Source of the DNA: Tetracentron sinense
Taxonomy: Eukaryota; Streptophyta; Magnoliopsida; Trochodendrales; Trochodendraceae
Direction: 5' to 3'
DNA length: 64,000 bases
Assembly (NCBI GenBank): GCA_015143295.1
Contig: CM026568.1
Span: 29,334,441 to 29,398,440, forward strand
The position numbers and the translations under genes are program-made. The notes beneath the pieces were generated by a model. The model was not told where the DNA came from. It was given only the letters and a program-made list of their open reading frames with translations, and made no database searches. How positions within the stretch are numbered: the stretch's first letter is position 1; each line of letters starts with the position of its first letter. Positions 3,701 through 59,900 of this stretch are shown piece after piece.

Positions 3701-6700
3701 TTCAATTCAACGAATAATTATTTGTTGGCAATTTTTTTTTATTGTTGTAAATATAACCCATGATGGATGCTACAAATGAAATTTCCCTATCACACATTTA
3801 CACTTGCTTCTTGATGTTTAAAATTTCGTTTGCATGTTCCACTATGCCAACACCCAAACCATTATATTGGCGCAACTTGAGCATTTCTTTCATCCAACTT
3901 AGTGTAGAGTGTTAACTTTGCATGTAATTATAACCATTCATCCTAATCATATATGTAACTGATACATATATGTAATTATAACCATTCATCCCGGGTCTCG
4001 AAACCGTACTTTTACCTTTGTTTTCCAAAAAATAAAACTTGGCCGAAACCGTGACGTATCGGCCGAGTCCTACGATACATCACTGTTTCAGCTGTAGGAC
4101 TCGCCCGACGTGTTAACATTTAAAGTGGTTCCGAAAATCCCTAAACCCATTCCGAACGCCTCTTTCTTTCCTATCTTTTTCTCTACTCATTCTAACCCCT
4201 ATTATCTAAGATCTTTTTGATTTTTGCTGATTAATAACTTGATTTGGGGTTTGAATCACCGATTTGAAAAAATCTACACCAAGTTCTTCATTTCGGGGAA
4301 AACTCAATTTGAGAGCTAAATCAGGTAAGTTTTCTCAATTTGTTTAATGCAAATTATGTTCATTTCAACCAAAACTTACTAAATGCGGTGTATGTTTCTA
4401 CTCTCGACCCATCTACTACATTTATATTCTATTATTTCTACATTTTCAACTTGATATTGGCTTTAGAAGTATGTTATTACTCATTTACTGCATTGTTTTT
4501 ATTTTTATTTTTTTTATTTATTGTGATTTTTTAGATGTTTTTAAACAAAAAGGAAAAAAAAACGGCCGAAACTGATACGTATTGGTTTCGGCTTGAGACC
4601 GTTACAGTGGCCGAAATCGAGTTTTTAAACCTTGTTTAGATGTTCTAATAATATTCAGAAAAGCTGAAATGGTGGTACTTATCAATTTCATTGTTTCTTT
4701 ACAATTTCTTACCACTTCTACTCTTCCATTAGGGATATGTTTGATCTGTGAATGTTAGACCGCCGCATGCATCTTCTTATCATTTTTTCCTGTGTTGGCT
4801 TTTATCTAGGGCGAGGAACCACTTACTGTAGCTAGCTTGTTGTATTCACTGGGTTTGCAGAAATATGCCATTCTTTTTCAGGCTGAGGAAGTAAGTATCC
4901 TGCTCTTACCTTCTATGAATGTAGGTACAATTGTACAATTGGAGACAAAGTTGTCGTTGCAAAGTGAAATTTTGAGACATTCCTTATTTTGATGTTATTT
5001 TAAACATGAACCCATAATTTGCACTGCCTTGATGGGTGCAAACGTGCAGGTAATCTGCTGATAATGGTTATATATGCATCGATTAGAGAATGATAGGAAA
5101 ATTGCCATGAGTGGATCTCAATTTTATTTTGGGCGGTAGTTTTATTCTTAGGGGCTTGGAAAACGGAGAAGATATGTGTTAGGTGGTCTCGTGTTGACAA
5201 AACATTGAATTTGGAACTGCCAAGCTGGACCTTGTTGGAAAGCGTCACCTCTCTTGAAAACGTGCTTATTGTTTGGTTTAAAAATTAGTACATTGACAAA
5301 AGAGTCATTCGATAGACTAAATGGGGGCTACTTGATTAGTGAAGGGAAATAAAGGTTAGAATTTTCATCCTAATAATATCTGTAGTGGTGGAAGCTCACG
5401 CCAAAGCTGTCGCTGATAGATTATGGTGTGGAAGAGACACATAGTTTTGATTGGGTTTGGCTTTGGTTGGGAGTTGGAGATGGCACCTTGCTGAGGAGAT
5501 GTGAGACTTTGAAGAGTGCCTTTCTAGAGGTGTAAGAGATTAGCAAATAACTGATATAGGGTTTAGACCATTTGCTCTTGTGATTTTAAGTATAACTAAG
5601 GTTTTAAATGTTGATATCGCAAGACATGTCGCACTGATGGGAAAAAGATATATCGGAGACATCGCAAAAAATATTGTTTCATAGGCATTTTATTAAACGT
5701 AAAAAGAAAAAGAAAAAAACACAGAGAATTTTGCAGTGAAACTCAAGTAAATGTTAAAATAGATATTAATTCATATTTGATAATATTTTTAAAAAAAACA
5801 ACACTTAGAAGATACAATGGGAAGGGGGCAAAGATGTGCACTGACAAGTGATGATAATCTATGATTGATTATTATTGATATAATTTAGATAAAATGTTTC
5901 ATTTATCCCTCAATGTATCATATAATTAAAGTTTCATACATAATACATTCATGATCCAACTCACCCCAAGAAGTACAATCAGAGCCACATGGAGTTACGC
6001 GGAGTCTTGAAGTTATCTCTGTCTTGACTAGGTTGATGATAGTACGAAAATGTATATTTACGTATATAATGCCGGTAGTCATTTGGTTCAAGATGTAGCA
6101 ATACTCCCATCGATGAATATTGTGGGTACTGAAGCATAACTGTCACCATGATCCCTTAAGATTCGGAAAAAAGCTTTGCAATTGGAATTTGAAATTTGGC
6201 TCGGATAGCTAAAAATTGTATTTAAATGGAGGGTGCCCTGCATATGCTTATAAAATTTTTGTAAAGCTTGAATGTAAGTCCTTTTTTATTGAACTATTAG
6301 TTGACTTTTTGACTTATGAAAATATTTTTGAAGACTAGAATATAAAACTTTTCTCACCGTACTTTTGGGTTTTATTGATATTTTGATATAGTAGAATTTA
6401 TGAAATTTTAAGATTTAAAAAATACTTAAACATTTAAAAGTTGAAATTTTGACCCCATCTCCTAAAAAGCGGATTTTGTTTTTGAACTGAAAAATTGACT
6501 TTTTATTCTTCAGAAATTTGGATGTAGGATAATTTTTATTGATTTCATATGTGGGTATAACCTTATTTACATCTAAATATCTTAAGTAAATGAAAGAAAA
6601 GTATAACAAAACTATTTACTTATGTAAATAAGCTGTATATAGTGAAGTTTATCCCCAAAATTTTGAAAAAATATTATTTCCATATACTGTGCGATATCGA

Positions 6701-9700
6701 CGATATATCGTATATTGATGATATATCATCAATATTGGTCGAAATCCTGTAAAATTTATACTATTGTATTTAGATATGTCGGTCACCACCGATATTTACG
6801 ATAAATTGTCAACATTTTAAACCATGAGGATAAAAACTCTTAGAAGCTGGATCGTTAGTTGTGAGTGAGTTCTATCTTTGTCAATGAATAGTCTAAGTTT
6901 TAGGGTAGTTCATGATTTTGTTATATTCCCAATCTGGGAGTTGATGGATATGCAAGAATTCGATATAGGTCTGTTTTCTCTTGTGGCTCAAGTATAAGAA
7001 CTCTTAAAGGCTGGATTATTCAGTTGATGAGTGTGTTCTCCATATATTTTTTGATCGGTAAATAATGATTATATTAATAGATCAAAATAAGTACAATCAA
7101 TTTACGGAGATGTAAAATTATCATAAAGGAAAGATGAGATAGTCTTATAACTAGTATAGACGTTGACTGCGCACAACAAAATATCATCGTCCAACCCCAA
7201 TAGACTGATTGAGCATCATTCCAATTGAATGCCGAATACGAGCTATAATTTGAGTGTTTGAAGAAGAGGAATTATAAAAAATACGACTATTCATCTCTTT
7301 CCAAATAGCCTACGAAAGGGTTCCAAGCAAAATAGTCCAGATTACTTTCTTTACACTAACTGGTGTCATCAATTGCCGACCTAATATGAAACTCAGAAAG
7401 GAGAATAAGAAGACTCAATCCACACCTAATCGAGACAAGAAGAAACCACAAAGCTAAAAAACAGTCGGACAATGCAAGAGCAAATGATCTAAGGTCTCTT
7501 CCTTGATTAGGCACAAAAAGCATCGGTTTGCCATACTTCACCCTCTACTTTTTAAATGATTAGTTGTAAGAATCTTATTCAAGGTTGCAGTCAAAAAGAA
7601 AAAAGATGCCTTTGATGGTACCTAGGGGGCACCAAATAGCCTTGAGGGCGAATATACAGTTGCAAAGGACTGTAAGAATGATCTCACTGAAAACTGATCA
7701 TTGTTGCTTTTAGGCCAAATCCTACAATCTCTAATCTGGGTATATGGGGGGAGGAGCTCAGGCGAGTGAAAAGGCATTGCAAATCGTCAACCTTTCATTC
7801 ATTTAGGTCTCTCCTCAAATCTAGGACACCAAATTGACTCACTTTCCGTCCTCTCAAAGCAATCAGCTACCGTGACCTCTTTATTCTTTATGAAGGGCAA
7901 GGAGAATTATGTTTCCAAAATCATCCTTAAGTCTTGAATAGCCATCCTAGGTGACTTTCCTAAAGTGAATTTCGGTTTCACTCCCCACCTTGAACCTGAT
8001 GTAAGGATCTAGTAACTTGGCCACAACTATGATACCTTTCCAAAGTCCTATCCCATGAGAGCCTCGCACCCCCTTTGGCGTCCAGCAAGATGTTTCCTCA
8101 TATTTTTTGACAATCACTTTCTTCCATAAACTCTCTTGTTCTTCACCAAATCTCCTTTTCCATTTGCCAAGGAGGGCCGTATACACTTTACTAAGTGGAA
8201 CTATGTTGAGCCCACCATCTCTTGATGGTTTATAGATTTGGTTCCACTTAACTAGATGATTTTTCATTTTCTCACCTTTCATTCCAAAGAAAGTTGTATT
8301 GCAATCGAAAAATGATCATGGCTATGGATTTTGGTAGTGATAAGGTGGACATGAAGTAGAGAGACTCCTAAGTGTGCTCTTAATGAAAGTTATTTTTTTT
8401 TTAAAATTTGCTGATAAAAAAAAATGATAAGAAGATATATATTAATTAAAAGAGAGCTACAAAAGGACAAGAACAATGTAAAGGAATTTACAATAGCGTA
8501 AACTCAAAGCAAAAAGCAGAAAAAGCATGAAAACTGAAAGGCCCAAGCTGTGACAGTCTCAACCCAACACCGCTCCAAGATCCACCTTGTCACTCCAAAT
8601 GGAGATCCAATTTAAGATTAGTAAACGGATCCGTGTTCAAATGCGAGAAATAGAAGAGAACAAGTTCTCGAATACTCTCCTATTTCTTTTTTTCCATATT
8701 GACCACGAGATAGTCCCAAGAAGAACAGACCAAATTGTTCTCTATGCACTATCCGTACTTACCAAAGACCAACAAGATAAGAAGTTGTGAAAGGAAGAAG
8801 GAAAGACCCAATCCACACTCACACAAGATAGGAAATGCCCCTAGATCACACCTACAATAGGGCAATGCAAGGGCAAATAATCCATCATCTCTTCCGCTTG
8901 AAGGCACAAAATACAATGATTAGCCATCATCCACCCTCTATTATTTAAGTGATTACAAATAAGAATCTTATTCAAATATAGGAAGAAAGATACTTTAGAT
9001 GAAATACGTGGATTCCACATTAGTCTATGAGGAAAAGATATTTAAGGCACTAACTCAAATGATAATAGTAGTGCTTTCACTGAGAATCGATCATTGTTGC
9101 CTCTAGACCAGATCCTAGTCCCTGCCCTATGGACTCGAAGGGGAAGACCCTAAGCGTGACAAAAGGCGACCCAAATCCTCAATTTCTCAATCGTTCAAAC
9201 CCCGTCTCAACTTTGGACCAAGGATTAAAAATACGTTTTCGAGAGATGAATCGATCCCAACCAAAAACCTATACGTATTGGTTTCGGGCGATACATATAA
9301 TTTTTCTTTTTTAAGAAAAAAATATAAAGAAACAAATTAAATATATAAAAAAATGAAATGAGTTATAGGAACCAAATATAAAGTGATGGAAAGCAACTCA
9401 AAAATAATGTAGCAAATACAATTACACAATGAATTAAAACATAAATTACTAATAAACAATACGTATCGCCCGTTTCGTATCAGTATAAATATCGTATAGG
9501 GGACTACTGATACCTATACGTATCCCCTATTTCGTATCGGTTTCGGCGATTTTTATTTCCATGCTTTGGACAGCACACCACCCTCTATTCCCTTGACTGA
9601 AAAGTCAAAATAGTCTCCCACTAGAGCATTATCGTCAATGGCTAAGAGAAAAATATTGTCAAAGGCATTCTTTAATTTCTCGGCCCCGTACCATGTCTTT

Positions 9701-12700
9701 TCAAAATGAACCTTTGACCTTTTGCCCGCTTTGAAACTAAACTTGGGCACAACTAGATTGACGACTGCCATAATACCCTTCTACAAACCTACCTCATAGG
9801 AGTACTTGACCTCCCGCGGGATCCAACAACAATTTGTTCCATATTTTGGCACTGTGACAGACCGCCATAAAATTTCTCTCTCCTCCCCAAATCTCCAAAT
9901 CCATTTGCTTAACAGAGTCTTATTCACTTGAACTAAATGCTTAATATCCAAGTACCATTTAGTAGCTTGAGATAATGTGTCATCTAAAGAGTTAATTCTA
10001 CACCGTTGGAGATGAAGTTTGACTTCCATCTTGCTAATCTAGAGGAGCATCTTTCAATCACTGGATTCCAATCTGCTTTAGATTTGAATGAAGCACTCAA
10101 GAGTAGACCAAGGTAATTTGAGAAGAGACAGCCTGTCTTACAACCTAAACAACTTGTGAAGAGATCTAGATGGGGTATCTCACTTACCCTCACGATTTCA
10201 CTCTTGCACAAATTAACCCTAAGGCCTGACCTAAGTAATCAGAGCGAGAGCAAGAGCGTCAAATTTCAATTTAGGATAAGGTCGAGAGCGCCTTCGGAGC
10301 GCCGATATATATACATTAAATATATATTGATGTTCTTGAAAATTACTTGTAGATGTAAATATATCTTTTTAGTTATTTAAACTCTTAAGAGAAAATTGAT
10401 AAAATCATTCATAATTCAAAATTTTCATCACAACAAACAAGATGACTATTGAATTATTAAATGTATCTTTCTAAATTCAATTACAAGATGACTAATAATT
10501 AACAAATCTTGTATGAATCTTGTACCCTACAAAGAAAACTGACAAAATACACTTCGTTTCACATGAAAAATTAGGATAAAAATAAAACTTTACACAAAAA
10601 CCGCACCTTTAGGTGAGAGCGAGGTTTACCAAAGTTGAAATTGAGCTCCTGAGGTGAAAGCAAGGTTTGAGAGCAGGAGCGAGTAGCAGGTTAGGGGGTT
10701 TGGGTTACTAATACTGCTTCAAAACATCACGGAATACACCTAAGATTAACAAGTTGACTAGACGAAGCTCCACAAAATACTAGGGTATTGTCTAGAGATG
10801 CAATATACTTGGTTGTTCTTGGCCTATGGATATACTTTTGTCTTGAACCCCTTGAGTTCTAGAAGAAACCTTTAGAATTATCATTGAGGAGGATTAGAGA
10901 AAGAAGTTCAGGATACACATGCTGATATCCATTTTCTCCATTTGAGACCATAGCCTATTCTATGCATCACTTATTGTAAGAACTCCCAATTAACGTTGTC
11001 ATAGGCCTTTCCCGTATCAATTTTGCAGATAAGCATTTGGATTCTTGATGTAAGGTGTCCATCCACACATTCATTGTCAATGAACAATCTAAATTTCAGG
11101 TTGTTCATGATTTTGTTATTTTCCCAATATGGGAAGTCCATGGATATATATTAGTTCAACCTAGTTTTGTTATATCATTCTTGTTTACAGTTCAAACCTT
11201 ACAATTCAAGTTGTGTGGTCTTTATGGAAGGAAAGAAACATTCACATGTTTGAGGATGTGGCTCGTCCCTTATTCATTATCCAGCGAGGGGTCTCTCTCT
11301 GTCAGCTCATCTCAGAGTGGGGGCTCCCCTAGGGGGATTTTGAGAACTCATGGATTTCACCACCCTCTTGCAGCAGTTTTTTTTTTCCTCTTTTGTTTTA
11401 TTATCCTTTTGCTGTCTTTTTTTCTTTGTAGCTTTTTTCCTCGTTTCACTAACTGTGAGTCCTTTTGTTTACTTTTTTTTTTCCTCTTCTTAAATGAGTA
11501 GTGGTTTTTTTTTATAAAAAAAAGGAAAAAAAGAGACCTGTGTACCTGTTCTTTCAAGCATGCATGTAACTGCAACTATAGTATTATAGAGTGCTGATAA
11601 AAAAAAAAATTATAGGATTATAGAGTATGCTGCATTAGAACAATGTTGAGGGTTTAACTCATGATGTCAAGAGCTGTAGCTATTATATTTATGCGGGGTC
11701 CATCAATTTTGAAAATAGAGAAGGTAATTCCAAATTCCTTTAGGGGTGGGTGTTTTAGTAAATTTTCAGTGAAATAATTAGTTTTTTCTTGTTTTTGGTA
11801 GTAGCTGATTTCTATTGTTTCTTCCGGTAGCTGATGTCAGACTTATTTTGATCTAATTTGCAGGTGGACATGACTGCATTGCAGCAAATGGGGGACAATG
11901 ACCTCAAAGAGTTGGGGATACCAATGGTATTTTCATTTATTAATCCCATAGTTAACTTTTATTATCAGATTTACTACTTGCTTTGTATACTATGTGAATA
12001 TGAACCAAATTTTATTTCACTGTCAATGGAGTTTGTATATTCTATTTATCTGGAAGTGCTTTGTATGTCTTACGTTTTGTCAACCTTAAAAGATCAGTAC
12101 AATATCATATAAGCATGCATAAATTAGCTCTATGTCATATTGTGTTTTTTCCCATTACACCAAGGGTATGCAACTCTCCTGATTTTCCTCTTTTAAGGAA
12201 TCTAATGTTCGAAACATTAATGTAACTCAATAGACTCCGTAGTTGGAGCCTGGGAGAGTCCCTTGATGTTTGGAGGCTCATCTTCGGGCTGAATTTCATA
12301 CACACACAATGCTAGTTACTATGTTTGCCACCTTACCCCATTTATAGTAATCACTTGCATCTTGTATGTTGGACCTATTGAATATTGTGCAACATCTCTC
12401 TTTCCGCTCATTCCAAACAGTTGAAAAGCATACCATCATTTATTAAGCTTTGGAATGATCATCTCTATGCTACTACTACCATTGCAACAAGAGCAAATGA
12501 GAACATGAACCCCATGATGAGAGGATCCAAAGAACCTCATATCGTCAGAAAGGTCACTACACACCAAGAGATGGGAATTCATCCTTTAATCTTTCTCAGA
12601 TCTTGTCGAGATTGGAAGCAGAATACCCATCTCATTTGGTTGGTCAGGAAACGAGGGATATATCTTAATGCTATCTGCTATTTATATGCTAGATCATGGC

Positions 12701-13254
12701 CTTTGGTACAGCAATCAGTCTTCCAAACCAAAACTGTTAGTGAACTCACATGCCCACAGACAACCTATAGGAGGATTCCACAGACTTCTCTTTGAAACAG
12801 AAACACTCAGTTGCTTTTAACACTTGAGCATTTCTATGGCCTTGAACTTTGCTTAACATCTCTATGATGTTGGACATTGTTGTAGTGGCTCTAACATGAA
12901 CTAGAGAATGCTCTCAAGCAAGTGAACACATAAGCAGTGCTGCAGTAGTCCAGAAAGAATTTCAAGGTAACATTTAGGATGCATAAAATATAATACATAA
13001 TTCCTGCTTTCCATTCAACTTACCTTGTTTGTTGTAAACTATACACGAGGCATTTGTAATTTACCTCGTTTCCATTCAACTTACCTCAGACAAGGACCTC
13101 TTTTTGTGGGCTCCTTATGAAGAAACGACACTGGATATCATTAACATTGTTCATTCAGGCATTTGAAATTTATATATGAAGGCTGTTTGGATTGCAGGGA
13201 CCGAGGAAGAAGATTCTCCTTGCCGTCTTGCCTCGTTCCAAACGGAAACTATGA
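731..13254 (+). CDS. SAM (sterile alpha motif) domain protein, 7 coding exons
   Basis: Exons read in one frame: 731-775, 1046-1188, 1515-1564, 1678-2195, 4810-4890, 11864-11926 and 13198-13254, all with GT-AG borders, giving 318 residues. The first 250 residues are basic and low in order: an MSRPQVTITLGRSGQ start, an RRRR patch, then Pro/Arg-rich sequence. Residues about 253-313 form a SAM domain (GEEPLTVASLLYSLGL, then AEEVDMTALQQMGDNDL, then ELGIPMGPRKKILLAV), spread over the last three exons. SAM domains mediate protein self-association, and some bind RNA. The layout matches small plant SAM proteins of unassigned function in Arabidopsis. The three C-terminal exons are separated by introns of 2.6, 7.0 and 1.3 kb, the larger two filled with transposons. 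Start chosen as the first ATG that opens this frame. Exon joins are inferred from frame and splice consensus; there is no transcript evidence. Confidence 0.88.
2238..2828 (+). repeat. Foldback element with TTTCGG/CCGAAAC end words (copy 1)
   Basis: Lies in intron 4 of the SAM gene. The ends are AAGGTTTAAAAA on the left and TTTTTTAAATCATG on the right, an imperfect inverted pair. The terminal 80-150 bp on each side repeat short words (GGCCGAAAC, TTTCGG, TTTACGTA, ACGTAACG). The AT-rich interior carries a TTTAGGGATTTTTGGAACC stretch. A second copy lies inverted at 3992-4634. No ORF of its own, so non-autonomous; no clear target duplication. Confidence 0.6.
2829..3240 (+). repeat. Diverged tandem duplication in intron 4
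   Basis: Two direct copies of a 160-230 bp unit, about 2830-2990 and 3003-3238. Each has ATTAACCCTAC, ATAGCTTA, CTAGGAGAGCCATTTGATGT and a shared tail that includes ACAAATCCTT. The second copy carries extra sequence in the middle. Non-coding. Confidence 0.65.
3992..4634 (-). repeat. Foldback element with TTTCGG/CCGAAAC end words (copy 2, inverted)
   Basis: Read on the minus strand it starts CAAGGTTTAAAAACTCG and carries the words GGCCGAAAC, TACGTAT and TTTCGG near both ends. Its interior (GGTTCCGAAAATCCCTAAAC, then CTACTCATTC, then TTGATTTGGGGTTT) is the reverse complement of the interior of the copy at 2238-2828. Both lie in intron 4, so the pre-mRNA could fold on itself over several hundred bases. 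Confidence 0.6.
5598..6823 (+). repeat. Foldback element with ATCGATATATCG end words
   Basis: Lies in intron 5 of the SAM gene. The left end AAGGTTTTAAATGTTGAT pairs with the right end, TGTCAACATTTTAAACC. Terminal parts repeat GATATCG, TATATCG, GATATATCATC and similar words, densest at 6690-6810. The interior at about 6380-6620 is the reverse complement of 56530-56760, inside an element with quite different end words (see 56334-57072). Non-coding. Confidence 0.6.
7048..8390 (-). mobile_element. L1-type LINE, truncated 3' part, antisense in intron 5
   Basis: On the minus strand, 8282-7947 encodes the region after the reverse transcriptase of plant L1 elements: KNHLVKWNQIYKPSRDGGL, then ALLGKWKRRFGEEQESLWKK, then a GIGLWKGI stretch. 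A zf-RVT-like piece (LCLIKEE-TLDHLL-like, across frames) follows near 7550-7480. The 3' end is at 7048 and reads TTTTTTGATCGGTAAA on plus. This matches the reverse complement of the 3' end of the LINE at 48880-50255, so both belong to one family. It is broken, 5'-truncated and without an intact ORF. Confidence 0.75.
9219..9558 (+). repeat. Foldback element with TACGTATC/TTTCG end words
   Basis: Inserted in the antisense LINE. The left end (CAAGGATTAAAAATACG) resembles the start of the elements at 2238 and 3992. Short words repeat on both sides: TACGTATTGGTTTCGGG, CGTATCGCCCGTTTCGTATC and ACGTATCCCC. The centre (9300-9450) is AT-rich with no ORF. Confidence 0.55.
10226..10711 (+). repeat. Foldback element with GAGCGAG end words (copy 1)
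   Basis: Inserted in the antisense LINE. The left end starts CCTAAGTAATCAGAGCGAGA; the right end carries GTGAGAGCGAGGTTTACC and AGCAGGAGCGAGTAGC. The AT-rich centre (TTGATGTTCTTGAAAATTA, then ATCTTTCTAAATTCA) matches 20797-21262 along its length. Two full copies in one window show a mobile family; no coding capacity. Confidence 0.65.
11041..11530 (+). mobile_element. LINE 3' end fragment, sense orientation, in intron 5
   Basis: Contains a decayed VVWSLWKERK-like stretch (11211-11240), the conserved C-terminal tail of plant L1 ORF2, followed by a T-rich 3' region and an A-run (11515-11530). The opening part (TGTTCATGATTTTGTTAT, then TTCCCAAT-TGGGA) recurs at 6905-6945. It meets the antisense LINE head to head near 11040. 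Broken. Confidence 0.5.
11927..13197. other. Intron 6 of the SAM gene
   Basis: No repeat family was recognised with confidence. A 136-codon open frame at 12385-12795 has no recognisable domain and its composition looks like chance. A short near-direct repeat (CATTCAACTTACCT-type) occurs near 13012 and 13074. Confidence 0.4.
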
Positions 13255-15929: not shown

Positions 15930-16325
15930 CTTTCCGATAGGTAAAATAAGTGAAGGGTAAGTTCATTAAAAAAAAAATGTTGAAATTATGGCTTTAATCA
16001 ACTATAAAAACAACACGCCTGGGTTTGTCCCAGGGTTAGTGTATCTCCTTTGGGGAGGAGTGACTCGTGTTCGAGTACTTTCCAATAGGTTAAATAAAAG
16101 TGCAGGGTAAGTTCATTAAAAGTTGAAATTATGGCTTTAATCAACTATAAAAACAACACGCCTGAGTTTGTCCCATTGTTAGTGTATCTCCTTTGGGGAG
16201 GAGTGACTCGTATTCAAGTCCTGATGTGGCCGTTAAGGGCCCACCCTTGAGTTCTAACCCACCTAACCCCCCAACCATGACATAGATAGATAAATGATAT
16301 AACTGATTATCAAAAAAAAAAAAAA
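15930..16325 (+). mobile_element. tRNA-derived SINE within a 149-bp tandem duplication
   Basis: The complete right copy starts near 16157 (CGCCTGAGTTTGTCCCA) and has a box-B-like GACTCGTATTCAAGTCC. It ends in AGATAAATGAT and an A-run at 16312-16325. The left copy (from about 16017) is cut after GTGTTCGAGT. Both sit in a direct duplication: unit 1 is 15930-16078 and unit 2 starts at 16079, each opening with CTTTCC-ATAGGT and containing GAAATTATGGCTTTAATCAA. A-box-like (TTTGTCCCAGGGTTAGTG) and B-box-like words suggest an RNA polymerase III origin. Confidence 0.65.
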
Positions 16326-17374: not shown

Positions 17375-17546
17375 AGTACTAGCCCTACTCTTAGGGCATT
17401 CCTACTTTTAGCCGGAGCCAACCACCTGGCCATTTTTAATGTTGAAGCCTTAGGATCACTGAAAAAGTATGGACTTTAACAATAAAAATGAATAAATGAT
17501 TGGCTCAAGTTCAAAGTAGGACTGCCCTAAGAGTAGGGGTAGCACT
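17375..17546. mobile_element. MITE with about 35-bp terminal inverted repeats
   Basis: The left end AGTACTAGCCCTACTCTTAG pairs with the right end, which read on the minus strand begins AGTGCTACCCCTACTCTTAG. The similarity continues through GGGCATTCCTACTTTTA. The centre is short and non-coding. No convincing target duplication, so the superfamily is open. Confidence 0.65.
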
Positions 17547-17889: not shown

Positions 17890-18680
17890 TTGTGATTTAG
17901 ATTCACACCCTTAGAGATAAAACATCTAAACCTAGTTTTTTTTTTAAAAATTTAATGTATCCCATTTTAACTCCCTTTAACTTAAGTGAAGATACATTAA
18001 CCCTTAGAGTTAAAGCATTTAACCTTGGTTTTAAAAGGAAATAAATTCCCTTTAACTATGGTGAAGATTCATTAACCCTTAAGGTTAAAGCACTAACCTT
18101 GAGTTTTAGAAAAAAATTAGAAAAAATTAACGTGTCCCTTTGCAACTCCCTTTAACTGTGGTTAAAATTCACTCAGCCTAATAAAAAATTTAATCATGTC
18201 TTTTAACTCCTTTTAACCGTGGTTAAGGTTCACTAACCATTAGGATTAGCGAATCTAACTTTGGTTTAAAAAAAAATAAAAAAATTTAAGTTGTCCCCTT
18301 TTAACTCTCTTTAACTATGATTAAGGTTAACTATCCCTTAGGGTTAAAGCATCTAACCTTGGTCCTTTATATTGAAAAAAAAAATTAATGTGTCCCTTTC
18401 CATAAAAGATAGGTTTTATTTTATTTTATTAAAAACCAAGATTAGATGTTTTAACCCTAAGGGTTAGCTGATCTTAACTGCAGTTAAAGAGAGTTAAATG
18501 GGGACACCTTAATTTTTTTTTCTAAAAACCAAAGTTAGATGTTTTAACCCTAAGAGTGAGTAAATCTTAACCACAGTTAAAAGGAGTTAAAAGGGGACAC
18601 GTTAATTGTTTATTTTTTTTCTAAAAATCAAGGTTAGATGCTTTAACCCTAAGAGTTAATAAATCTTAATCATAGTTAAA
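17890..18680. repeat. Two-way tandem array of the TTAACCCTAAGGGTTA core
   Basis: About five units of roughly 100-120 bp run in one direction from 17890 to 18390. Each has TTTAACTGTGGTTAAG-like sequence, ATTCACTAACCCTTAGGGTT and CATCTAACCTTGGTTTT. About three units in the opposite orientation follow to 18680 (AAAACCAAGGTTAGATG, then TTTAACCCTAAG, then AATCTTAACCACAGTTAAA). The whole block is thus a large imperfect palindrome. The same unit recurs singly or as an inverted pair in many elements listed below. Confidence 0.7.
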
Positions 18681-19005
18681 GGTTATTTTTTGGGATTTCG
18701 GTGAAATTTCGAAATTCGAAATATTAATATTTTTATATATATATATAATTAAAAAATAATATTTTATTAAATTTTATATATTTATATAAATATTATTGTT
18801 TTATTTTTAAAATTAATATATAAATTTTCAAAATTTCACGAAATTTCAGTAAAAATTTCAAAATTTTAATAAAAAAAAAATCAGATGTCAGCTAAAATTC
18901 CGAAATCTTCAAAATCCGAAACTTCACCCCAAATTTTCAAAATTTCGGCCAAAATCTTCAAAATTTAGGCCGAAATTTGATTTTCGAAATAAACCTAGTT
19001 TCAAT
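18681..19005. repeat. Foldback element with GAAATTTCG end words
   Basis: The ends GGTTATTTTTTGGGATTTCG and (minus strand) GGTTTATTTCGAAAATC form an imperfect inverted pair. Both flanks repeat CGAAATT, GAAATTTC, TCAAAATTTC and CCGAAA words around a pure A/T centre (18720-18830). It abuts the palindromic array without a spacer. Non-coding. Confidence 0.55.
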
Positions 19006-23995: not shown

Positions 23996-25122
23996 CAGGG
24001 GCGGAGCCAGATGGGGGCCTGTGGGGGCACGTGCCCCCACTAAACTTTTGTAAAAAAAATGTTTTTTTAAATATAGCCATTGAAATGGGCCATCGAATCA
24101 CAGCCACTTGCAATTGAACTCAGGCAGAGTTCAATTGCACCCATAGGCCAACACGTGTCCCTTTTAACCTATATTAATCGTGGTTAAAATTCACCAACCC
24201 TTGGGATTCAATAATATAACCTTGGTTTGTTTGATAAAATATTAATCTCATGGTTTTAAAATTCTTATCTAGAGTTAATTATTTTTTTCTAAAAACTAAG
24301 GTTATATTATTGAATCTCAATGGTTAGTGAATCTTAACCATAGTTAATAAGGGTTAAAAGGGATACGTGTTGGTTGTGGGTGTGATTGAACTCTCCCAAA
24401 GTTCAATCGTAATTGATTGTGATTCGATCTCTGGAAATGGAGGCTAGGGCTGCTTGAGCTTTGAGTTTGAGTCTATCCAATTGTGATTGAAATTTGAATT
24501 GTACTCACAATAGGGCGGAAATCGAAGTAGGAGGATTAATATTTTCAAAATATTTTTTTTCTAAAAACCAATGTTAGATTGTTGAACCCTAAGGGTTAAT
24601 GAATCTTAATCATAATTAACCAGAGTTAAAAAGGGACATGTGTTGACCTGTGGGTGAAACTAGACTCTTCCAAGTTTAATGCAACTGACTATGATCCCAA
24701 CTCCTGAATTTTAAATAAAAAATATCTTTTATACTAAGTTGATTAATTAGTTAAGCGTGCATAATTATGGACAAGGAGCTTATCCCCTAAAACATTATAT
24801 TATGTTATTTAATTATTTAATATGGCATAACCATGAGGCAACGGAACAATTATCTCCTGAACTTTTGAAAACAAAATACATATTTTATATCATATTATTT
24901 AATTATTTAACAGGACATATAACTATAGAAGACAATTGTATTATAAACAAAGAGAAACAATACCCATAAGATATGTACGAAATGAATGGATGGAATGGCC
25001 CAAGAACTTAAGTCATAAAAAAAAACTACACCCCCTAAACCCTTAGACCCAGAATATTTCATACCTAATTTCAATTAACAATTGTGTGCCCCCACTACTA
25101 GAAAATCCTGGCTCCACCCCTG
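23996..25122. mobile_element. Non-autonomous hAT-like element, 1.13 kb
   Basis: The terminal inverted repeat is CAGGGGCGGAGCCAG on the left; the right end is CTGGCTCCACCCCTG (one mismatch). Flanks GCTATTCA (23988-23995) and ACTATTCA (25123-25130) form an 8-bp target duplication with one difference, as expected for hAT. There is no transposase. The interior carries several copies of the palindromic core in both orientations (about 24110-24220, 24290-24400, 24560-24650), next to Helitron-like words (GAGTTCAATTGCACCCA at 24128). Confidence 0.8.
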
Positions 25123-34570: not shown

Positions 34571-34926
34571 CGTAATCTTCTCCAGTTGTAACCGGTTTTG
34601 CCAAAACCGGTTACACCCCTGAGGTGGCCACATGTTCCTTTTGACACATTTTAATTGTGGTTAAGATTCACTCACCCCTAGGGTTCGCTAACCTATCATT
34701 GGTTCTTAGAAAAAATAATAAAATAATTTATTAACCGTGGTTAAAATTTATTACCTCCTAGGGTTAAATTTTTTAAAATATTTTTTCTAAAAACCAAAGA
34801 TAGGTTGGTGAACCCTAGGGGTGAGTGAATCTTAACCACAATTAAAGGGTGTAAGAAGAGACACGTGACCACCTCGGGAGTGTAACCGGTTTTGGCAAAA
34901 ACCGGTTACAACGGGAGAAGATTACG
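34571..34926. mobile_element. Long-TIR MITE with AACCGGTT palindrome (copy 1)
   Basis: Inverted ends of about 65 bp, nearly perfect: CGTAATCTTCTCC, then GTTGTAACCGGTTTTG, then CCAAAACCGGTTACA, then GAGGTGGCCACATG. Within each arm the GTAACCGG/CCGGTTAC pair is itself a hairpin. The centre carries the palindromic core in both orientations (34660-34850). No ORF; target duplication not found. Confidence 0.68.
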
Positions 34927-46082: not shown

Positions 46083-46262
46083 AAATTGATATGCAAACAT
46101 CCCCCTCCCTCTTTTCCTTTTTATTCACAACCCATCATGCTTCTCGATCACATTTTTTGGGTCCATATTCTATTGAATTATATACAAATATTGCTATTTG
46201 AAATAATGGGAGTGCTAGCCATCCTCTCCTCTTTAGGGGCAAGACTGATATAAGAAAAGGAT

Positions 46263-46412
46263 AAAGCTTCTGAGACTCTCTTAGGGCCGAGACCCCGAGA
46301 CCATACTCCAAGGGCATAGGATTTCATGTGGGGCCCATTTCATGATGGGCTCCACCTGAAATCCTATGCTCTTAGAGCACGGTTTCGGCCTAAGAAGGTC
46401 TCAATAGCAAAT
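46263..46412. mobile_element. Foldback MITE, 150 bp
   Basis: GCTTCTGAGACTCTCTTAGG and GGGCATAGGATTTCATGTGG on the left pair with CCACCTGAAATCCTATGCTC and GGCCTAAGAAGGTCTCAATA on the right. It folds almost end to end. No ORF; duplication not assigned. Confidence 0.65.
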
Positions 46413-50900: not shown

Positions 50901-53900
50901 ATGAATTAATCGTTCGATGAAAAAGTCGGGTATTATTCGGGATTTTTTGAAATAATCGGAGAACTTGGTAACTACTAACTATGCTTGAGTCTGATTAATT
51001 ATTAATGTTTCCCACGTTTTTGTTTCTGTTAACAAGTTATGCTCATCAACTTAACAATCCAGATTGTTTAAAAGGAATGCATATGATACTGTAAAGAGAG
51101 TATATTGGACCACCTGGACTGCATTATTCCTTTTGAGCCAAAAGGGTATTCTGATCATACTGCGACAGTACTATGGTTTCTATTTTTTTTTTGGTTGACT
51201 CAGCTTCTGATATGGATAAATGTAGTAAGATTTATTGTCTTTTTTTAATTTTGCATTAAGATGGTTTTTGTATGTTATGCTCTTGCTCTACTATGTGGTG
51301 GATGAATTGCCTACTAATGATATATATCATACAATTTTAGGTACCATCCAGACAAAAATGCAAATGATCCTAAAGCGGCTGATACATTTAAGGAAGTTAC
51401 ATTTTCCTATAAAATTCTCTCTGATCCAGAAAAACGACGTCATTATGACACAGCTGGTTTTGGGGTAAGATATTTAGGCAGGTGTGTAATTATAAGAACT
51501 GCTTAAATAACTTGTAGTAGCCTCACAGAGTTAGTGTTGATGCTACTGTTTGAGGTTCAGAAATTTCAGTTGTTACTGACAGTTACTAAGTTTGTATCTT
51601 TTGTGTGGTCTAGACTCTAGTCATTACGGTTTTACATTAGCGTCAGCAAATTTATTTCCACCATTTGTGTTGCCATGAAGAGTTGGTGCTAATTGCTGGT
51701 GCAATTGGTCTTTGCCCAGGCTATTGAATCAGAAAGCCAAGATTTGGAGCTAGATCTTTCAAGTTTGGGAGCTGTGAATACCATGTTTGCTGCACTTTTT
51801 AGGTAAGTCCAGATTAAGGGAAGTTCTGCATTTTTACTTGTGAATAGACTCATGATACTCATGAGCCCTGTGCCACGAACTGATGTGCTCAGTTCTGTTC
51901 TTGTATGTTCTACGCAATAGTAAACTTGGTGTGCCAATTAAGACCACCATATCGGCAATTGTCTTGGATGAGGCACTGAGGGGCATGGTAACCATTCGTC
52001 CACTTATGCTAGATCAACCCTTTTTTAAGAAGGTTAGGTATTGTTATCCCTTTTCTTTTTCTTGGTTTAGCTATTATCTTGACTCAGCCTAGTGGACACA
52101 TTTGAGTATTTATCATCTTTTTACAGGTTGAGAAACAATGTGCTCACTTCTATTCTATAGCAATAACAGAACAGGAAGCACAAGCTGGATTTGTGTGTCG
52201 AGTGCAATCGCCAGACAAGAGCAAATTCAAGGTTTGTACAAAAATTGCATGTGTTTGGTGTTATGTTCAACTTTAAGATTCCCTCTTATTCATATGAAGC
52301 TTGGTTGACGTTTATTCCTTTATAAAAACATGAAATAATGGTTACTTTCAAAATGTGATAATAATTTAGGTAAAATGAAACACAATCACACTAATGGGGG
52401 GAACTAATGCTGATGCCAACAATTCCTCATCTTCTAGTTAAAGACACTTAAAAAAAAGGAAGATACTTTGAGCTTTCAATAGATTAGGGCCTGAACTGCA
52501 AAAATGTCAAATTATTACTACTAATGAAAGCCGGGATGGGGGAGGTCCACGTGGCGTGTTTAGAGCAATTTTAGGGAATGAAGAGATATGTTTAAAGAAG
52601 TTTTTCATATTCATACCTCTTCATTTTGTATTGGATTCTGCACACCTACTAATATTGGACTCCAATGACTTTGATGGAAGGGATGCAACGTTTGGATTTT
52701 TGAGTGGGGCTCGAATCTTCACTGACACCCTTCAATTGCACCTCTTTCCTGCCCTTAATTTTCTCCCTGCACTATTTATCTTTCACAGCCAATTAAGTAA
52801 TGGGTTACACGGTTGTTTGGATTGAGAAAGTAGTGGGCCGGCGATGGTTAGATGGAATGTCCATGCAACCACGCCTCCTCTTTTCTACCATTTTCTATTC
52901 TCTCTCCCCTTTAAATATCAAACATTCCATGTGATGTGCCTGTTTGGGAGGGATGCACCTATTGGAAGTCTGTTTTCAGGGAGACAGAACTATGAATTGG
53001 GGGAGCGATGCAACTATTCGTAACAAAGTTCAACTCTTGATTGGTTTCACCTCCTTCCGCAACCGACACACCTATTCACACTGCATCTTTATAAATGCTC
53101 CTCTCTTTCTCTCATTATTGAACACGCAACATAAACAATAATGTCGCCCTTATTCTCTCTTTTATTTTCTCATTCTCTTTCTCTGTTATGTTCTCATAAA
53201 CTCTCTCAACCTCCCAATCAATCGAATCTATTACTGTACAATAAAGAAATAGAGGTGCCAACAACGAGAAAATCCTACGTGGCATCCTTCTTAGTTTTCT
53301 ATTTCCAATTTGCTACCACCACAATGACTCTTTAGAGTTCTCACGTGGCTCCTTAAAATTGAGTTTTTGATCAACATCAGATGACCCACTCAACGGGCAC
53401 GCCCATTACAAAAGCTATTGTTCAAACGGTTTCGGGTTCCAATGGCATTTCCAAACGTTTTTGGGTATATCATATAACTTCACCTTCCAGCCTGCCATAT
53501 CTTTCCATTTTCTTGCAACTTTGTCTCTCCCTCCGACACTTCACTTCTATCTTTAAAAGAAAATTTTTCCAAAATGGCCACAGAACCCAGATATCATCTC
53601 CAGACACTTCATTTTCAATTGGAGAGATTCATTCCACTCTTATGTGTTTACTACTCATGCAGAATACAAATTTCAGTCCTTCAAAATAACAAATATCCAT
53701 AGAAATAGGAAGAAGAAGAGAAACAGAATTAGGGGAACATACCAGCGTTGTGGGAGACGTAGATCTTGATGAGGGTTGTTTTTGGGAAATCGTAAAGGCG
53801 ATACTGCGATAGTGAGTCGACTCAGTCCTTGGAGATACGAATGACTCATCATCTGCAAGAGAACTTTCCATTACATGAGGGAATGATCCGATGTATTGTA

Positions 53901-56900
53901 GTTTGAAATCTCTACTTGAATCAAGGTTAGTCCTTATTTTTGGTTCTTTTATGGATACCGGTTGGTGGTTTCACCAAGTAATGTAGGTACATTCATAGAG
54001 AAGCAAGAGACCCTCAAGTAAGTTTGGATAAGAGTAAAATTCATAAATGTTTCATTAAGATAGTTTTGTCTATTTTACAAAATTTAATATTGAACATTCA
54101 TGGAGAAGCATTCCTTTGTAATGAACTTTATCTATTGTTATTACTATAGCTTTTGTTTGTGGAAAATTGATTTGTTGTTAGAATGGAGAAACAGTTCTAG
54201 CAAATTAATTAAGGAGTTGAAGTGGAACAATGAAATAAAATGAAAGTTACGCTTGGTGTGTGCGTGTGAGTTATTTACCTCTACCTAAAAACAAAATGAA
54301 ATTTATGCTTCAATATTTTTTGGAAAAAAGGCATGTTGTCAAAAGTTTTTTTGAGTGTGTGACATTGAAGTGGAACAATACAAGCTTAGATCCCTTATTT
54401 TTCTAGACAAAGTTAGCCTTAGATTTGTAAACACATAAGGGTTTTTGTTCTCTTTGTAGTTTATAAGATTTATGTACCCCTGTATTCTTTTTAATTAATA
54501 AACAGGTAGGGTCTGCCAAACCCCACTTTCATATTCCCTGATCTGGTATTTCACTTGAAGGTATTGCCATCATTAAGCTACTAGAGCTATTAGGTTAGTG
54601 TCAATGGGTGTGCGTGCGCACTACATAGAAATTCTAGTCTTCCAATTAAGGACGCAAGTCTAGGGCTTCTAAAATCAGAACTTGGTTGCCTTTTCCTTCT
54701 TATTTTTTGTTATTAATTTTTTCCACCTTAGTATAAGTATAATTCACTTTGAGAAATATGCGCTCACTTGATGGACATTTTTTCTGCACTTAATATTTGA
54801 TCTCTTAACCCAGAAAATGTATGTCAGATGAGAGGGGTTTTACTTGAACCTTTATATTGATCTCTGAAATTCTCCTACATTATGTATATGCGTATATTGC
54901 AAAGTCCACAAATCAAACCAGTTAGAGATCATCTTCAACACTTCATTTTGTATTATTTGGAGAGATGAAGCTTGTGATTAATACTGTTGTTACCAATGAA
55001 TGATAACTGAAGTTTTTCATTTTTGTTCTCCTTGGCTAGACAATGTTTATAGTCGACATTCCTGGAACCAAACTTTGTTCAATTCCCATATTTGTATCTA
55101 AGAGGTTTTTTTTGGTGAGGATTTCTATAGTATAGTTATTGTTGCTCCCGTGCATCGCATGGGCCATGGGGTGTTTGCTAGTGTAAATTAAGTCAAACTT
55201 GAAGTGTGGCATAAGTTGGCTTGGGCTAAACTTTATTCTTAAACCATTTTCCCACACATTAGATATCTTTTTTTTTATTGACAATGATGAGCATATATTA
55301 ATCAAAAGGAGCTACAAAGAAAAGAGTTTACAAGAACGTATTAAAAGAAGTAAACAGAAGCAGAAGCAAGTTAGGATTCCCATGTACTGAGAAATACATA
55401 AAAGCTCAACCCAGCACAACTCCCAGATTTGCCCCATCATGCCGAAAGGATGCCCATTCTAAGACCAGTAAACAAGTATGGGAGCAAATGCGAGATAGAG
55501 AAGAATGAGAATCCTCGAAGACTTTTTTGTTTCTCTCTTTCTATATCACCCATGAAATGGCCCCAAGAAGAACCACCCAAATAACCCTCCGCGCACTATC
55601 CTCAATAACGCACTATCCTAACTAACCAAAGGCCAACAGGATAACAATCTGTGAAGGGAAGAAGGAAAGACCCAATCCACGCCTAATTCTTCAATACGAA
55701 AAAAAAAAATTTGGGATGTTTCCCCTAAAAAACGTTCATTTACACCAATCCACGCCTTTTTTTTACCATTCAAAAAAAAAATTCCGGACACATTATTGTA
55801 TGAACGATAGTGAAATTGAATCTTTTTTTTTATTGAGTGGTAAACTGAATCTGAAGTGTTGCAAAGACAAAGTTAAGTTCCAATTGGAGAACTTTGAGAA
55901 GTAGAAGGGCCTCTGATTTTGGAAGGATGTGAAAAAAAACCCTAGATTCTAGGGAAAAGAAAATAGTGGAGAGAGATATTGTAGAACATTGAAACCTACA
56001 CATTATAGGATTTCCACGTGAGTTGAAACTTGCGGGAGTTCCAATACCATATTGATATGCATGGTTTTGTACTCCCTAGAGAGTTTCAAGTTCCCTTGAA
56101 TTGGATCTAACGAAGACCCGAAATTGTATGAATTTCTGTGGAATCCTAATTCCCACATAACAACACGCCCTAAGTTGCGGATATTGTTTGAATTCCTTTG
56201 GAATCCCAATTCCAGCATAACAAAGTGCATAAGTTGAAAACATTGACCCTCTTAAATTTTGATTAAATATTTCCAAAACTTCTTTCTTGTATCCAATAGT
56301 CCAAACTTTCTTACTCTTTCCATTCCTATCAATCAGTGTAGGCAAGGCGACACAAGGTGTCGCCTGGGCGTTGCCTAGGCGGTCGCCTAGGCAGTTTTGG
56401 ACTGTCACTACCTAGGCACCCCTCTAGGCGGGAGGTAGTCACCTGGGCGCTTTAATAGTTAGCCTGCTTTATAGTTTTACAACTTATTTATTTATAATAC
56501 CATTTAAGTAAATGGTTTTACACTTTACTTTCATCTACTTAAGATATTTATATGTAAATAAGGTTATATTCCTAGCCCCCCATTTGAATTTAATAAAAAT
56601 TATCTTAGATCTAAATTCCTAAAGAATAAAAAGTCAACTTTTCAGTTCAAGAACAAAATCCGCTTTTTTAGCGCCTTAGTCAAAATCTCAATTTGCAAAT
56701 GCTAAGTTATTTCTCAAAATTTAAAATTTCATTAAATTCTACGATAACAAAATATTACTAAAATCCAAAAGTCTTGAAAAAAAAAAAAAAGTCTCATATT
56801 TTAGTCTTTAAAATTTTTTTCATCTACAAGATCAAAAAGTCAACTAATAGTTAAGCAGAAAAATACTTATATTCAATCATTACAACATTAAATGTTAATT

Positions 56901-59900
56901 TACCTAGACCCTAGAAGGTTTGAATTATGTGTAAATATTAATATTATATATATATATAATTTAATTATTTTTATCGCCTAGGCATTGCCTGAGCGATGCC
57001 TAGGTAATCCCTTGCCTAGTTAGGCCTAATCGGCTAGGCATCGCCTAGACTCCTTGACTACACTGCTAAGTGCTATCAATTAACTAGCAGCCACAAGCAT
57101 TCCTTGGATTTGCTCTACTGCAGAATACAGTTCACTTTTCTTTCAACTATTTTTTCTATGGAATTGTTTCACTCTTCGGGTATTTTAGTTTTAAAAATTC
57201 ACACCATGACCTTTTACTGAAGTGTTTGGCTTCTATGCAGCTGTTGTATTTTGAGCAAGAAGAGAATGGTGGATTAAGCCTTGCACTGCAGGTACTTAAA
57301 TTTTTCTTTTCGGATTTTTTAATTGTTATAGTTGGAATAGTCTGTTCAAGTATTCTCGAATGAGCCCTGATCAATACTGAACTACTTATGTATAACCATT
57401 GGCGGATAAGAATGAAGGCATGAATTAATGAAAAGATTGTCATATCATGCTTTAACCTTCTATTAGATACAAACTTTTGATCTTGTACAAGATCTCACAC
57501 ACTTGGCATATTGTTTCTGACCTTAAGTTACATCAAAATTTCAGAGTGCAAGCACTCGCCTTTGTAGAGCTCACTTGCTCTTTCAAATTTGCTCTGCAAT
57601 TATTGAATTTTGAACATCATATCCTTGCCAAACCATACTACCAAATTTCTTTTTCTCCTCCAGTCGAGATGAAAACATATAAATTGCGATCTCTTGTTGT
57701 TCTTCAAATGTTATATCCAGGAAAAAGACAATGAAGGGCACGAAATTAAGACTTTAGGGCCAATTCATTAATGGAGCTGAGGTTTACATGTTTTGCTCTG
57801 TGATTCTGGCCTAGCTATTTGCCTGCCTTTTGAGGAGCTCACGTGGTTTTTGACTTAAATTGACTGATCAGCCTAATTGGTGATGAGGGAGCCAGCGTGC
57901 CCAGGGTCTTATGAATATCATTTGGATATTGATTATGTTTTAAGTGTCATGCGAAACTCCTCAATCTTCATACATATCTCGGTCAAACCATCCGAAAATT
58001 GCCCTGACAAGATACCATTCTTCCTCTGAGTCACACCATAGCTCAAACTGCAATCTGAATTGTAACCCTTTTCCGAAGAGGCTCCTCTACCATATAATTT
58101 AGAGTTATTAATCAAATGAGTATTTATTAACTGTACTATCCTAATAAGAAATTTTCAAGGCCTATTGGTATATGCCCAGCAATTCCTTTTGCAAGCAATG
58201 GGTATTTTCCCTAACAATGGCAGATTAGTGTTACCATACAAAGGCTTGCTAGGGAATCTCTGCATTCATTTTGGATTTAAGTGACTTAAGAAATAATGAA
58301 ATGCATTATATCACCAATATAGACTCAACATGCCAATGCCATTTGACCTACAGGCATACATGTACAAAATACACTGAACTCCTATATGCTTATGTGCATA
58401 TGAGTGTCTATATATTAATACTTGTGAATAAACTATAAAGTTTACAGTTTATGCTTCTTTTAGATTTCCTTGTATATATGTACAATTATAGAGTTGCATT
58501 TCAGATCCATTTTGCACCCATTTGTGATACTCATAATACTTGAACTGGTAGACATGGTAGGTGCTCATGTTAGCATAGCTTTAACCTTTTCCATTTTGTT
58601 TTTTTTATCATTTTGATGCACAAAAATGCCTTCTAGTATAATTAAATTACGTTCCAAAAAAAAAAAAAAGGTATTTGAGCATTTGTTAGAATATTGCTCG
58701 TATTTGGGATATAGCCTTAGTACAAGCATCACACATAATACAATGACTAGCCAATCATCACCTTGGTGCTTGGAATGGTTTAAACTAATCTTCTCTAAGT
58801 AACATACTCACCGTTTGTCCATCTCATAGTTCTACAGAAACTATGTAGAAGGTGGGAAGATCACTTCCTAGACTCACTTCATTCATGTTCCACTTTGTAG
58901 TCAAAGAGGGTCACGTATGTGGGAGTGGGATGTGAGGGGATTGACCCGAGTCTACAATCAGTGGTGTAGACCTTAAGTGAGTATCGTTTTATTGAAACCT
59001 TCTTTGTAAAGGATTGATAGAATATAGTGCGCCTCTACAACCAGTAATGTAAACCCTATGTGAATACCATTAAATTAAAAAAAAATCACAAAAGATTTAG
59101 TATTGATTGTATTATTTTTATTTCAACCCAAGGACAAAAGATTAAAATCGGATGGTTTTTATACAAGGTCCACTATAGTCTAATGCTACTACTATTTCAC
59201 ACCCTAGTGCAAAATTTAAGGTATGTCTTGAAATCTAATGGAAGTGATACGACTAATATCTCATTTCTCACTTCTTGTTTCCGATGAATATTTTGAGCCT
59301 TGCTTCCCGCTTCTCACTTCTTGTTTTGCTTCATTCTTCTTTCCTTTTCAATGCCAAGCTGGATTTTTAATATCTATATGCTCTCTTTTGTCAGTATGTT
59401 TCTAATTTGGATAGCCAACGTTGGTTGGGAGTTGGGACACATTTATCCATAATTCCATATAAGAATCAAGGTTTTTGATTCTCTGTTGGTCAAGGACTCT
59501 CCCGTGTACTGTTCTTCGTAGAGAGTTCCCTTGAGGACTCTCTGTTTTATATGAGAGAGAGTTGGGGAGTTACCCAACTGATTCCCCACATTGGAGAGGC
59601 ATTATAGGAGCATCCTCTCTTGAAAGGAGTCCATCTGTCCAATGGATAGTTTTTTGCTTCTAGTGGACCAACAAATGAAGGAAGTGCTCTCTTTGTTGAA
59701 GGCACTTGGCAACATTTTCTCCTGTTTTGGAGAGAATCGTGATTTGAAAGAGAGGAGTACATAACTCTCCTCTTAATGGAGTGCCAATTGGCACCTTAAC
59801 ATTAGTGCATTTAGGGGGATCCTTATCATGAGATCCCCCACTTAAAGTACTTGGGGATCCTTATTTAGGATCCTCTGACACATATCAGCCATTTGTTGGT

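What the first reader, a model, noticed from the sequence alone, without database searches (positions are those of the whole stretch)
5598..57072. Foldback elements with different end words but a shared interior
At least seven short non-coding element types in this window have ends made of drifting repeats of one short palindromic word. The word differs: TTTCGGCCGAAAC (2238, 3992), ATCGATATATCG (5598), TACGTATC (9219), GAGCGAG (10226, 20797), GAAATTTCG (18681), ATTCGTGAA (50641) and GCCTAGGC (56334). The interior 6380-6620 of the ATATCG element is the reverse complement of 56530-56760 in the GCCTAGGC element. So the end word seems able to change while the body is kept, or bodies are swapped between ends. 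Several ends also begin AAGGTTTAAAA-like. I know of no described mechanism for this.
Basis: partly seen in the sequence, partly recalled or inferred. Interest (0 to 1): 0.7.

Follow-up and report, generated by a model that had tools for sequence, protein, structure and literature searches.

The report
Jumping-gene parasites that changed drivers
In this plant genome one non-coding DNA stretch sits inside several kinds of small hAT jumping elements whose ends carry different repeated words, apparently because the stretch was passed between elements that are moved by different transposases.

Summary
The shared interior is real: window 6259-6622 matches 56885-56505 reversed, 77.9% over 384 bp. The carriers are not classical foldbacks but non-autonomous hAT transposons. 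The 'words' are family-specific subterminal repeats. Seven transposase-bearing zf-BED/DUF659 families were read at both ends. All seven have an exact 8-bp target duplication and a repeated end word beyond all 200 shuffles: ATATCG (A), GATACG (C), GTAACG, CTAGGC (B), ACTCGG, AACTCG, AGGCGT. Transposases of A and B are 40%, of A and C 36% identical, yet their non-autonomous elements share the body at 80-90%. The body was not found in 79,042 bases fetched around transposase hits, which cover autonomous A and B end to end. So the body was transferred between families, not inherited. On the body tree B is one clade; C rows are unresolved among A, and one C clade is not rejected. Minimum: two end switches. 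The word is therefore not shown to drift around a fixed body. Best reading: Ds2-like chimeras with a common filler between the ends of different hAT families, probably made by template switching in gap repair (inferred). Whether the body does anything is unknown.

The parts
5597..6826 (-). A-type (ATATCG) non-autonomous hAT element; transposase sense is the minus strand
   Evidence: 5598-6043 and 6050-6146 match autonomous A (L090) at 68-73%; tips TAAGGTTTTAAATG / CATGGTTTAAAATG; flanks 6 of 8 by eye
6150..6640 (-). Body (filler) of the A element, from the GGGCTCAT-type edge to the TTTACAGCTTATTTACAT-type edge; edges approximate
   Evidence: 6259-6622 matches the B body; edges from consensus comparison
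6050..6146 (-). Remnant of the last coding part (Tyr-rich tail) of the A transposase
   Evidence: 73% to L090 5155-5251, inside its 427-aa frame
56334..57065 (+). B-type (GCCTAGGC) non-autonomous hAT element
   Evidence: tips CAGTGTAG...CTACACTG; 56945-57065 matches autonomous B 3' end L064 at 77%; CTATCAAT at 56326-56333 and 57073-57080
56505..56885 (+). Body (filler) of the B element, same orientation relative to the transposase as in A
   Evidence: consensus edges
2238..2827 (-). g7-type non-autonomous hAT element (TTTCGG / GTTACG words)
   Evidence: 2237-2464 matches L067, 2749-2830 matches L069; target duplication ATTTTTCC 8/8
3992..4634 (+). Second g7-type element, right end resolved, left end not
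   Evidence: 4431-4637 matches L067 at 72%; copy of 2238
9219..9563 (.). hAT-type element with GATACG/TACGTATC words; left end homologous to a g7 end
   Evidence: target duplication CTTTGGAC 8/8; 9219-9358 vs 4634-4503, 69% over 140 bp

Best explanation
The elements are non-autonomous members of several families of plant zf-BED/DUF659 hAT transposons. Each autonomous family has its own short word repeated through both ends. By analogy with Hermes I infer, but did not show, that the word is the site bound by BED zinc fingers of that family's transposase. The shared body is filler DNA. In families A, B and C it lies between a family-specific 5' end and a family-specific 3' part, in place of most of the transposase gene, as in maize Ds2. 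The same body lineage was transferred between families at least twice, so the same passenger came to carry the ends recognised by different transposases. The likely route (inferred) is template switching during gap repair after excision, with a body-bearing copy as donor.
For: Seven of seven families with both ends read: 8/8 target duplication and a commonest end 6-mer above all 200 shuffles. Pfam: DUF659 and BED in A and B, BED in g1, g3, g5, g7, hAT dimer domain in A and g7. Non-autonomous elements match the ends of the family whose word they bear: A2 consensus vs autonomous A 717 bp at 76% (3') and 146 bp at 74% (5'); C copy L013 vs autonomous C 530 bp at 78% (3') and 78 bp at 77% (5'); window B element vs autonomous B 123 bp at 77% (3') and 33 bp at 94% (5'). 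All 30 fetched body copies lie in A (23), B (4) or C (3) elements (my assignment). Body identity across families 80-90% (A1, A2, B as consensus, C as single copies) against transposase identity 40% (A-B) and 36% (A-C). Body not found in 79,042 bases fetched around transposase hits (best E 0.024). B elements with the body inside have flanking duplications of 7 or 8 of 8 in 21 of 26, so the body moves as part of the element.
Against: No donor-recipient event was caught; the source of the body is unknown. A 2.1-kb stretch of autonomous C and about 1.3 kb each of g1, g3, g5, g6 and g7 were not read. The left edge of the body is about the same in A, B and C, and the right edge the same in A1 and C, which a cassette with fixed ends would also give. 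g6 was read at one end only, its word is weak (11 of 200 shuffles as high) and Pfam found no BED in it; the C BED is below the Pfam cut-off. Binding of the words by the BED domains was not tested. The A-C relation on the body tree is unresolved.
Confidence: 0.78

Rival explanations
1. The body is an independent mobile cassette with fixed ends that inserted separately into A, B and C elements.
For: Left edge about the same in all, right edge the same in A1 and C; hundreds to thousands of body-like candidates in the genome (3661 first-look candidates).
Against: 30 of 30 fetched body copies are inside A, B or C elements; right edges differ in A2 and B; no direct or inverted repeat seen at the edges by eye; the two sides of the body in A come from the 5' end and from the transposase tail, so it is not a plain insertion into an otherwise whole element.
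Confidence: 0.12
2. Word drift: one element lineage keeps its body while its end word changes step by step.
For: The 9219 end is homologous to a g7 end but has other words; A, C and g7 words (ATATCG, GATACG, GTAACG) differ by few bases and their tips are alike; the C rows are scattered among A rows on the free body tree.
Against: The words of A, B and C each belong to a separate autonomous family with its own diverged transposase; all 33 B bodies are one clade, and a single C clade is not rejected; the linkers next to the body also differ between families.
Confidence: 0.06
3. The body is an ancestral part of the common ancestor of A, B and C, kept alike by gene conversion between copies.
For: Same orientation and similar place relative to the ends in all three.
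Against: Absent from autonomous A and B read end to end and from the read parts of C; conversion would itself be transfer between families.
Confidence: 0.04

Closest known systems
Maize Ds2, Ds1 and Ds-l4 elements of the Ac/Ds hAT family (PMC3260210; abstract and sections 9 and 17 read)
   Same: hAT tips, 8-bp target duplication, subterminal repeats of the driver family, internal filler from elsewhere; Ds1 copies share a filler
   Different: There the fillers belong to one family with one repeat (AAACGG); here one filler is shared by three families with different words and different transposases
Hermes hAT transposon and its BED domains (PMC10368747; passages read)
   Same: BED zinc finger at the transposase N-terminus; subterminal repeats near the tips; two BED domains on a quasi-palindromic pair of repeats
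   Different: Hermes repeats are AAGT/AAGC; here each plant family has its own longer word in dense arrays; binding not tested
SINEs that keep a conserved middle and exchange tails with different LINEs (PMC6887750; passages read; CORE-SINE literature cited there, not read)
   Same: A non-autonomous body pairs with different driver-recognised ends
   Different: Those are retroelements; here both ends of a DNA transposon change, and no conservation of the body beyond copying is shown
Foldback elements (recalled)
   Same: Repeated sequence in the ends
   Different: No long inverted arms here; short tips and word arrays

Membership tests
hAT superfamily | 8-bp target duplication | tested here: met
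   8/8 in 7 of 7 autonomous families with both ends read; 7-8 of 8 in 21 of 26 B elements; 8/8 for window 2238 and 9219
hAT superfamily | Short terminal inverted repeat of CAGTG/CAAGG type (recalled) | tested here: met
   tips CAGTGTAG, CAGTGTTT, CAAGGTTC, CATGGTTC and the like
hAT superfamily | Transposase with hAT dimerisation domain and BED finger | tested here: met
   Dimer_Tnp_hAT in A and g7; BED above cut-off in A, B, g1, g3, g5, g7; C below cut-off, none reported for g6
hAT superfamily | Excision and transposition activity | not testable with these tools
   needs a bench assay
Ds2-like chimera | Ends of an autonomous element around internal sequence unrelated to it | tested here: met
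   A, B and C ends match their autonomous elements, the body does not
Ds2-like chimera | Mobilised by the transposase of the ends | not testable with these tools
   inferred from the shared ends only
Foldback element | Long inverted-repeat arms (recalled) | tested here: not met
   25 of 27 inverted pairs of 40 nt or more were listed, none within these elements
Mutator-like element | Target duplication of about 9-11 bp (recalled) | tested here: not met
   duplications are 8 bp

The most novel reading that the evidence does not exclude
A non-autonomous DNA-transposon body can live on as its own lineage by changing drivers: it is handed from one hAT transposase family to another by exchanging its ends, the DNA-transposon counterpart of SINE tail exchange. 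The end words form an evolving recognition code between BED zinc fingers and their sites that can be read within one genome (T at the position equivalent to Hermes 66 in the three families with ATATCG, GATACG and GTAACG words, H in the two CCGAGT families; B, also with H, breaks a one-residue rule). The body may be kept because it helps the element amplify.
Probability: 0.25. Interest if true: 0.8.

Novelty: new variant of a known kind. Interest (0 to 1): 0.55.

Why it matters
Non-autonomous elements are usually thought of as tied to one autonomous partner. A body that moved between distantly related transposases shows how such a passenger can outlive its driver. Many BED/DUF659 families in one genome, each with its own repeated word, would also make the question of how hAT transposases change DNA specificity directly testable: BED domain and word can be lined up pair by pair and assayed.

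Tried and rejected
Rejected: foldback class (no long arms); Mutator-like class (8-bp duplications); the body as the last intron of the transposase (my first idea from the A2 consensus; dropped because the C tail is one continuous frame and the body is missing from autonomous A and B and from the read parts of C); the body as a 5' leader (same calls).

Tried without result: target duplications for the 10226, 18681, 20797 and 50641 elements. Ten answered paper searches. (DUF659 with subterminal) and one search gave no paper. The others gave listings in which I saw nothing on one body shared by hAT families with different words, but I opened only four papers, and the library lacks most subscription journals, so absence in print is not shown.

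Weak or contrary results: mosaicism within A is only suggestive (A2-like linker with the A1 junction in L006, L019, L022; L025 ambiguous). The BED-word correlation (Pearson 0.79 for 6-mers over 7 families, 10 of 5040 permutations as high; Spearman only 0.34) rests largely on two pairs (g3-g5, A-C), and shared ancestry alone could give it. Perfect palindromes were not above shuffles in 4 of 7 families. In one search the protein comparison of the C tail with L013 and L030 used a wrong reading frame and is not used; the DNA comparison of that call is.

Rows dropped before counts: L015 and L039 (near-duplicates of L014 and L038) from the 62 body sequences of the tree; of 34 B loci, L039 and L045 were left out, and of the 32 tried 26 had both tips found; of 40 matches listed, 30 were fetched, and of 59.
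Full report
WHAT WAS CLAIMED AND WHAT IS THERE. The window is C18:29334441-29398440 of a 1.16-Gb genome held as G000 (unnamed; I take it for a flowering plant from its content). The shared interior is real: 6259-6622 against 56885-56505 on the other strand, 77.9% over 384 bp, E about 1e-85; the next best match in the window has E 0.069. The word-rich ends are real but degenerate: two of the words as typed do not occur exactly.

THE ELEMENTS ARE hAT TRANSPOSONS. Two of the nine listed elements have exact 8-bp target duplications found by script (2238-2827 ATTTTTCC; 9219-9563 CTTTGGAC). For the GCCTAGGC element 30 genome copies were fetched. Of 26 B elements with both tips found, 21 have flanking duplications of 7 or 8 of 8 bases, 14 of them 8 of 8. 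By eye, the ATATCG copy L021 has AGACTAGG on both sides and the GATACG copy L013 has TTTTTGCA / GTTTTGCA.

THE WORDS BELONG TO TRANSPOSASE FAMILIES. The genome is rich in DUF659 (150 scored of 1783 first-look candidates) and hAT dimer-domain matches (150 of 1709). Flanks of selected copies were read. Seven families could be read at both ends. All seven have 8/8 duplications, and the commonest 6-mer of their ends exceeded each of 200 shuffles: g1 AGGCGT, g3 ACTCGG, g5 AACTCG, B CTAGGC, g7 GTAACG, C GATACG, A ATATCG. An eighth, g6, was read at one end only and its word is weak (11 of 200 shuffles as high). Longer palindromes occur in the ends, such as TCGGCGATATATCGCCGA (A), CGTATCGGCCGATACG (C), CGTTACGTAACG (g7), ACGCCTAGGCGT (B), ACTCGGCCGAGT (g3, g5), but the number of perfect 8-bp palindromes is above all shuffles only in A, B and g3, and TA runs inflate B and g3. 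Pfam: BED and DUF659 in A and B; BED in g1, g3, g5, g7; C below the BED cut-off; none reported for g6; hAT dimer domain in A and g7.

NON-AUTONOMOUS ELEMENTS BEAR THE ENDS OF THE FAMILY WHOSE WORD THEY CARRY. The A2 consensus matches the 7.16-kb autonomous A element (L091+L090, duplication CTAGGCAA) over 717 bp at the 3' side, including the coding tail (76%), and over 146 bp at the 5' side (74%). The C copy L013 matches autonomous C (L089, L088, L075; duplication AATATAAG) over 530 bp at the 3' side (78%) and 78 bp at the 5' side (77%). The window B element matches autonomous B (L092, L068, L064; duplication GCTACACA) over 123 bp at the 3' side (77%) and 33 bp at the 5' side (94%). The window elements at 2238 and 3992 match ends of autonomous g7.

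THE BODY. The 30 copies fetched with the window body (of 40 matches listed) lie in A (14 A1, 9 A2), B (4) or C (3) elements by my assignment from words, linkers and junctions. Body identities: A2-B 89.9% and A1-B 88.9% over 405 bp, A1-C 87.2 and 88.5% over 593 and 573 bp, A2-C about 85%, C-B 80.3 and 83.3% (A1, A2 and B are consensus sequences, C single copies). The left edge is about the same in all; the right edge is the same in A1 and C and falls shorter in A2 and B. Orientation relative to the transposase is the same in all. A search with a whole C element gave 40 scored of 6013 first-look candidates, three of which (itself included) cover 1476 or more of 1479 bases in one piece, so the C form with the body has been multiplied. 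The body was not found in 79,042 bases fetched around transposase hits (best E 0.024). These cover autonomous A and B end to end, but leave 2.1 kb of C and about 1.3 kb each of g1, g3, g5, g6 and g7 unread.

WHY NOT INHERITED. The transposases of A and B are 40% identical over 351 residues, those of A and C 36% over 315. A non-coding stretch at 80-90% can hardly have come down with them from a common ancestor (inference). So the body passed between families. The body tree has 60 rows. All 33 B rows form one clade (SH-aLRT 97 on the quick tree; 95/98 on the careful tree, in 94% of 200 bootstrap trees). The four C rows need 4 changes on either tree, no better than shuffled labels, but the branches that part them are unsupported. 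Holding C together gives a likelihood 5.06 higher than the free tree found, p-AU 0.605; A2 as one clade (p 0.492) and A1+A2 as one clade (p 0.442) are not rejected either. So the least reading is one switch to B and one between A and C; more A-C switches are not excluded. B's body is a shortened form of the A body, and its copies are less diverged from each other, which suggests, but does not show, transfer from an A2-like element to B.

WORD CHANGE ALONG END LINEAGES. Separately, ends do change word: the 9219 end is homologous to a g7-type end (69% over 140 bp) but carries GATACG-type words. Tips of A, C and g7 are alike (CAAGGTTC, CATAGTTC/CATGGTTC, CATGGTTTC/CAGGGTTC) while their words differ by few bases. 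In Hermes two BED domains bind a quasi-palindrome, with base contacts from residues 64, 66, 67 and 70 (63 and 65 through the main chain) beside the zinc-binding H71 (PMC10368747, passages). Aligned on that H, our families read at 64-67 and 70: A G-I-T-R, W; C and g7 G-I-T-R, E; B G-I-H-R, L; g3 G-I-H-R, H; g5 G-I-H-R, Q; g1 G-I-S-R, N; g6 G-V-F-R, H (alignment; the mapping to Hermes is mine). BED similarity and word similarity correlate (Pearson 0.79, 10 of 5040 permutations as high; Spearman 0.34), on few pairs, and shared ancestry would do the same.

MECHANISM. Shown: hAT anatomy, family-specific end words, chimeric structure, presence of one body lineage in three families. Strong inference: transfer between families. 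Inferred only: words are BED-binding sites; chimeras arose by template switching in gap repair after excision; each chimera is moved by the transposase of its ends. Known parallel: maize Ds2 carries filler between Ac ends and Ds1 copies share a filler (PMC3260210, abstract and sections 9 and 17). The difference is that here one filler is shared across families with different words. I saw no paper on that in searches, judged from listings of an open-licence library.

OPEN. Source of the body; L026, with C-like body and tail but TTCGG-like words at its left end, which may be a nested element; the class of the GAGCGAG, GAAATTTCG and ATTCGTGAA elements.

Noticed in passing
L022 about 2100-3265 (C16): A 1.1-kb element with AAGGCG-type words is nested in an A1 element, flanked by CCCACAGC/CCCACAGT (7 of 8, by eye): hAT inside hAT.
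   Followed up: no
L080 about 605 onward (C1:28658916-28660016, minus): A B-type end (CAGTGTAGTCAAGG, CCTAGGC words) joined to an interior in which the body was not found, so B ends may carry other fillers too.
   Followed up: no
L045 (C23:16754276-16756357): Part of the B element (query 463-640) is repeated in tandem several times.
   Followed up: no
G000: C9:38466603, C16:17762706, C17:25863826, C18:30996857, C19:8150540, C23:24583174: Six matches to the A tail with the same score and the same 399-aa open frame on six chromosomes: autonomous A copies may have moved recently; their DNA was not compared.
   Followed up: no
L089 about 1753-2124 (C18): Another repeat with CTCGAGAG/CTCGGGAGA words lies inside the autonomous C neighbourhood and matches L054 and L047 at about 81-82%: a further word family.
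   Followed up: no
window 17900-18690, 24148-24373, 34596-34900: Copies of another inverted-repeat family with TTAACCCTAAG-type sequence, some with arms of 100 nt or more; not part of the finding.
   Followed up: no
body at window 6150-6640: The longer A1/C body contains a degenerate internal duplication (about 150-200 bp at 73%, period about 326 bp) and an imperfect hairpin of about 30-bp arms near its left edge (by eye).
   Followed up: partly
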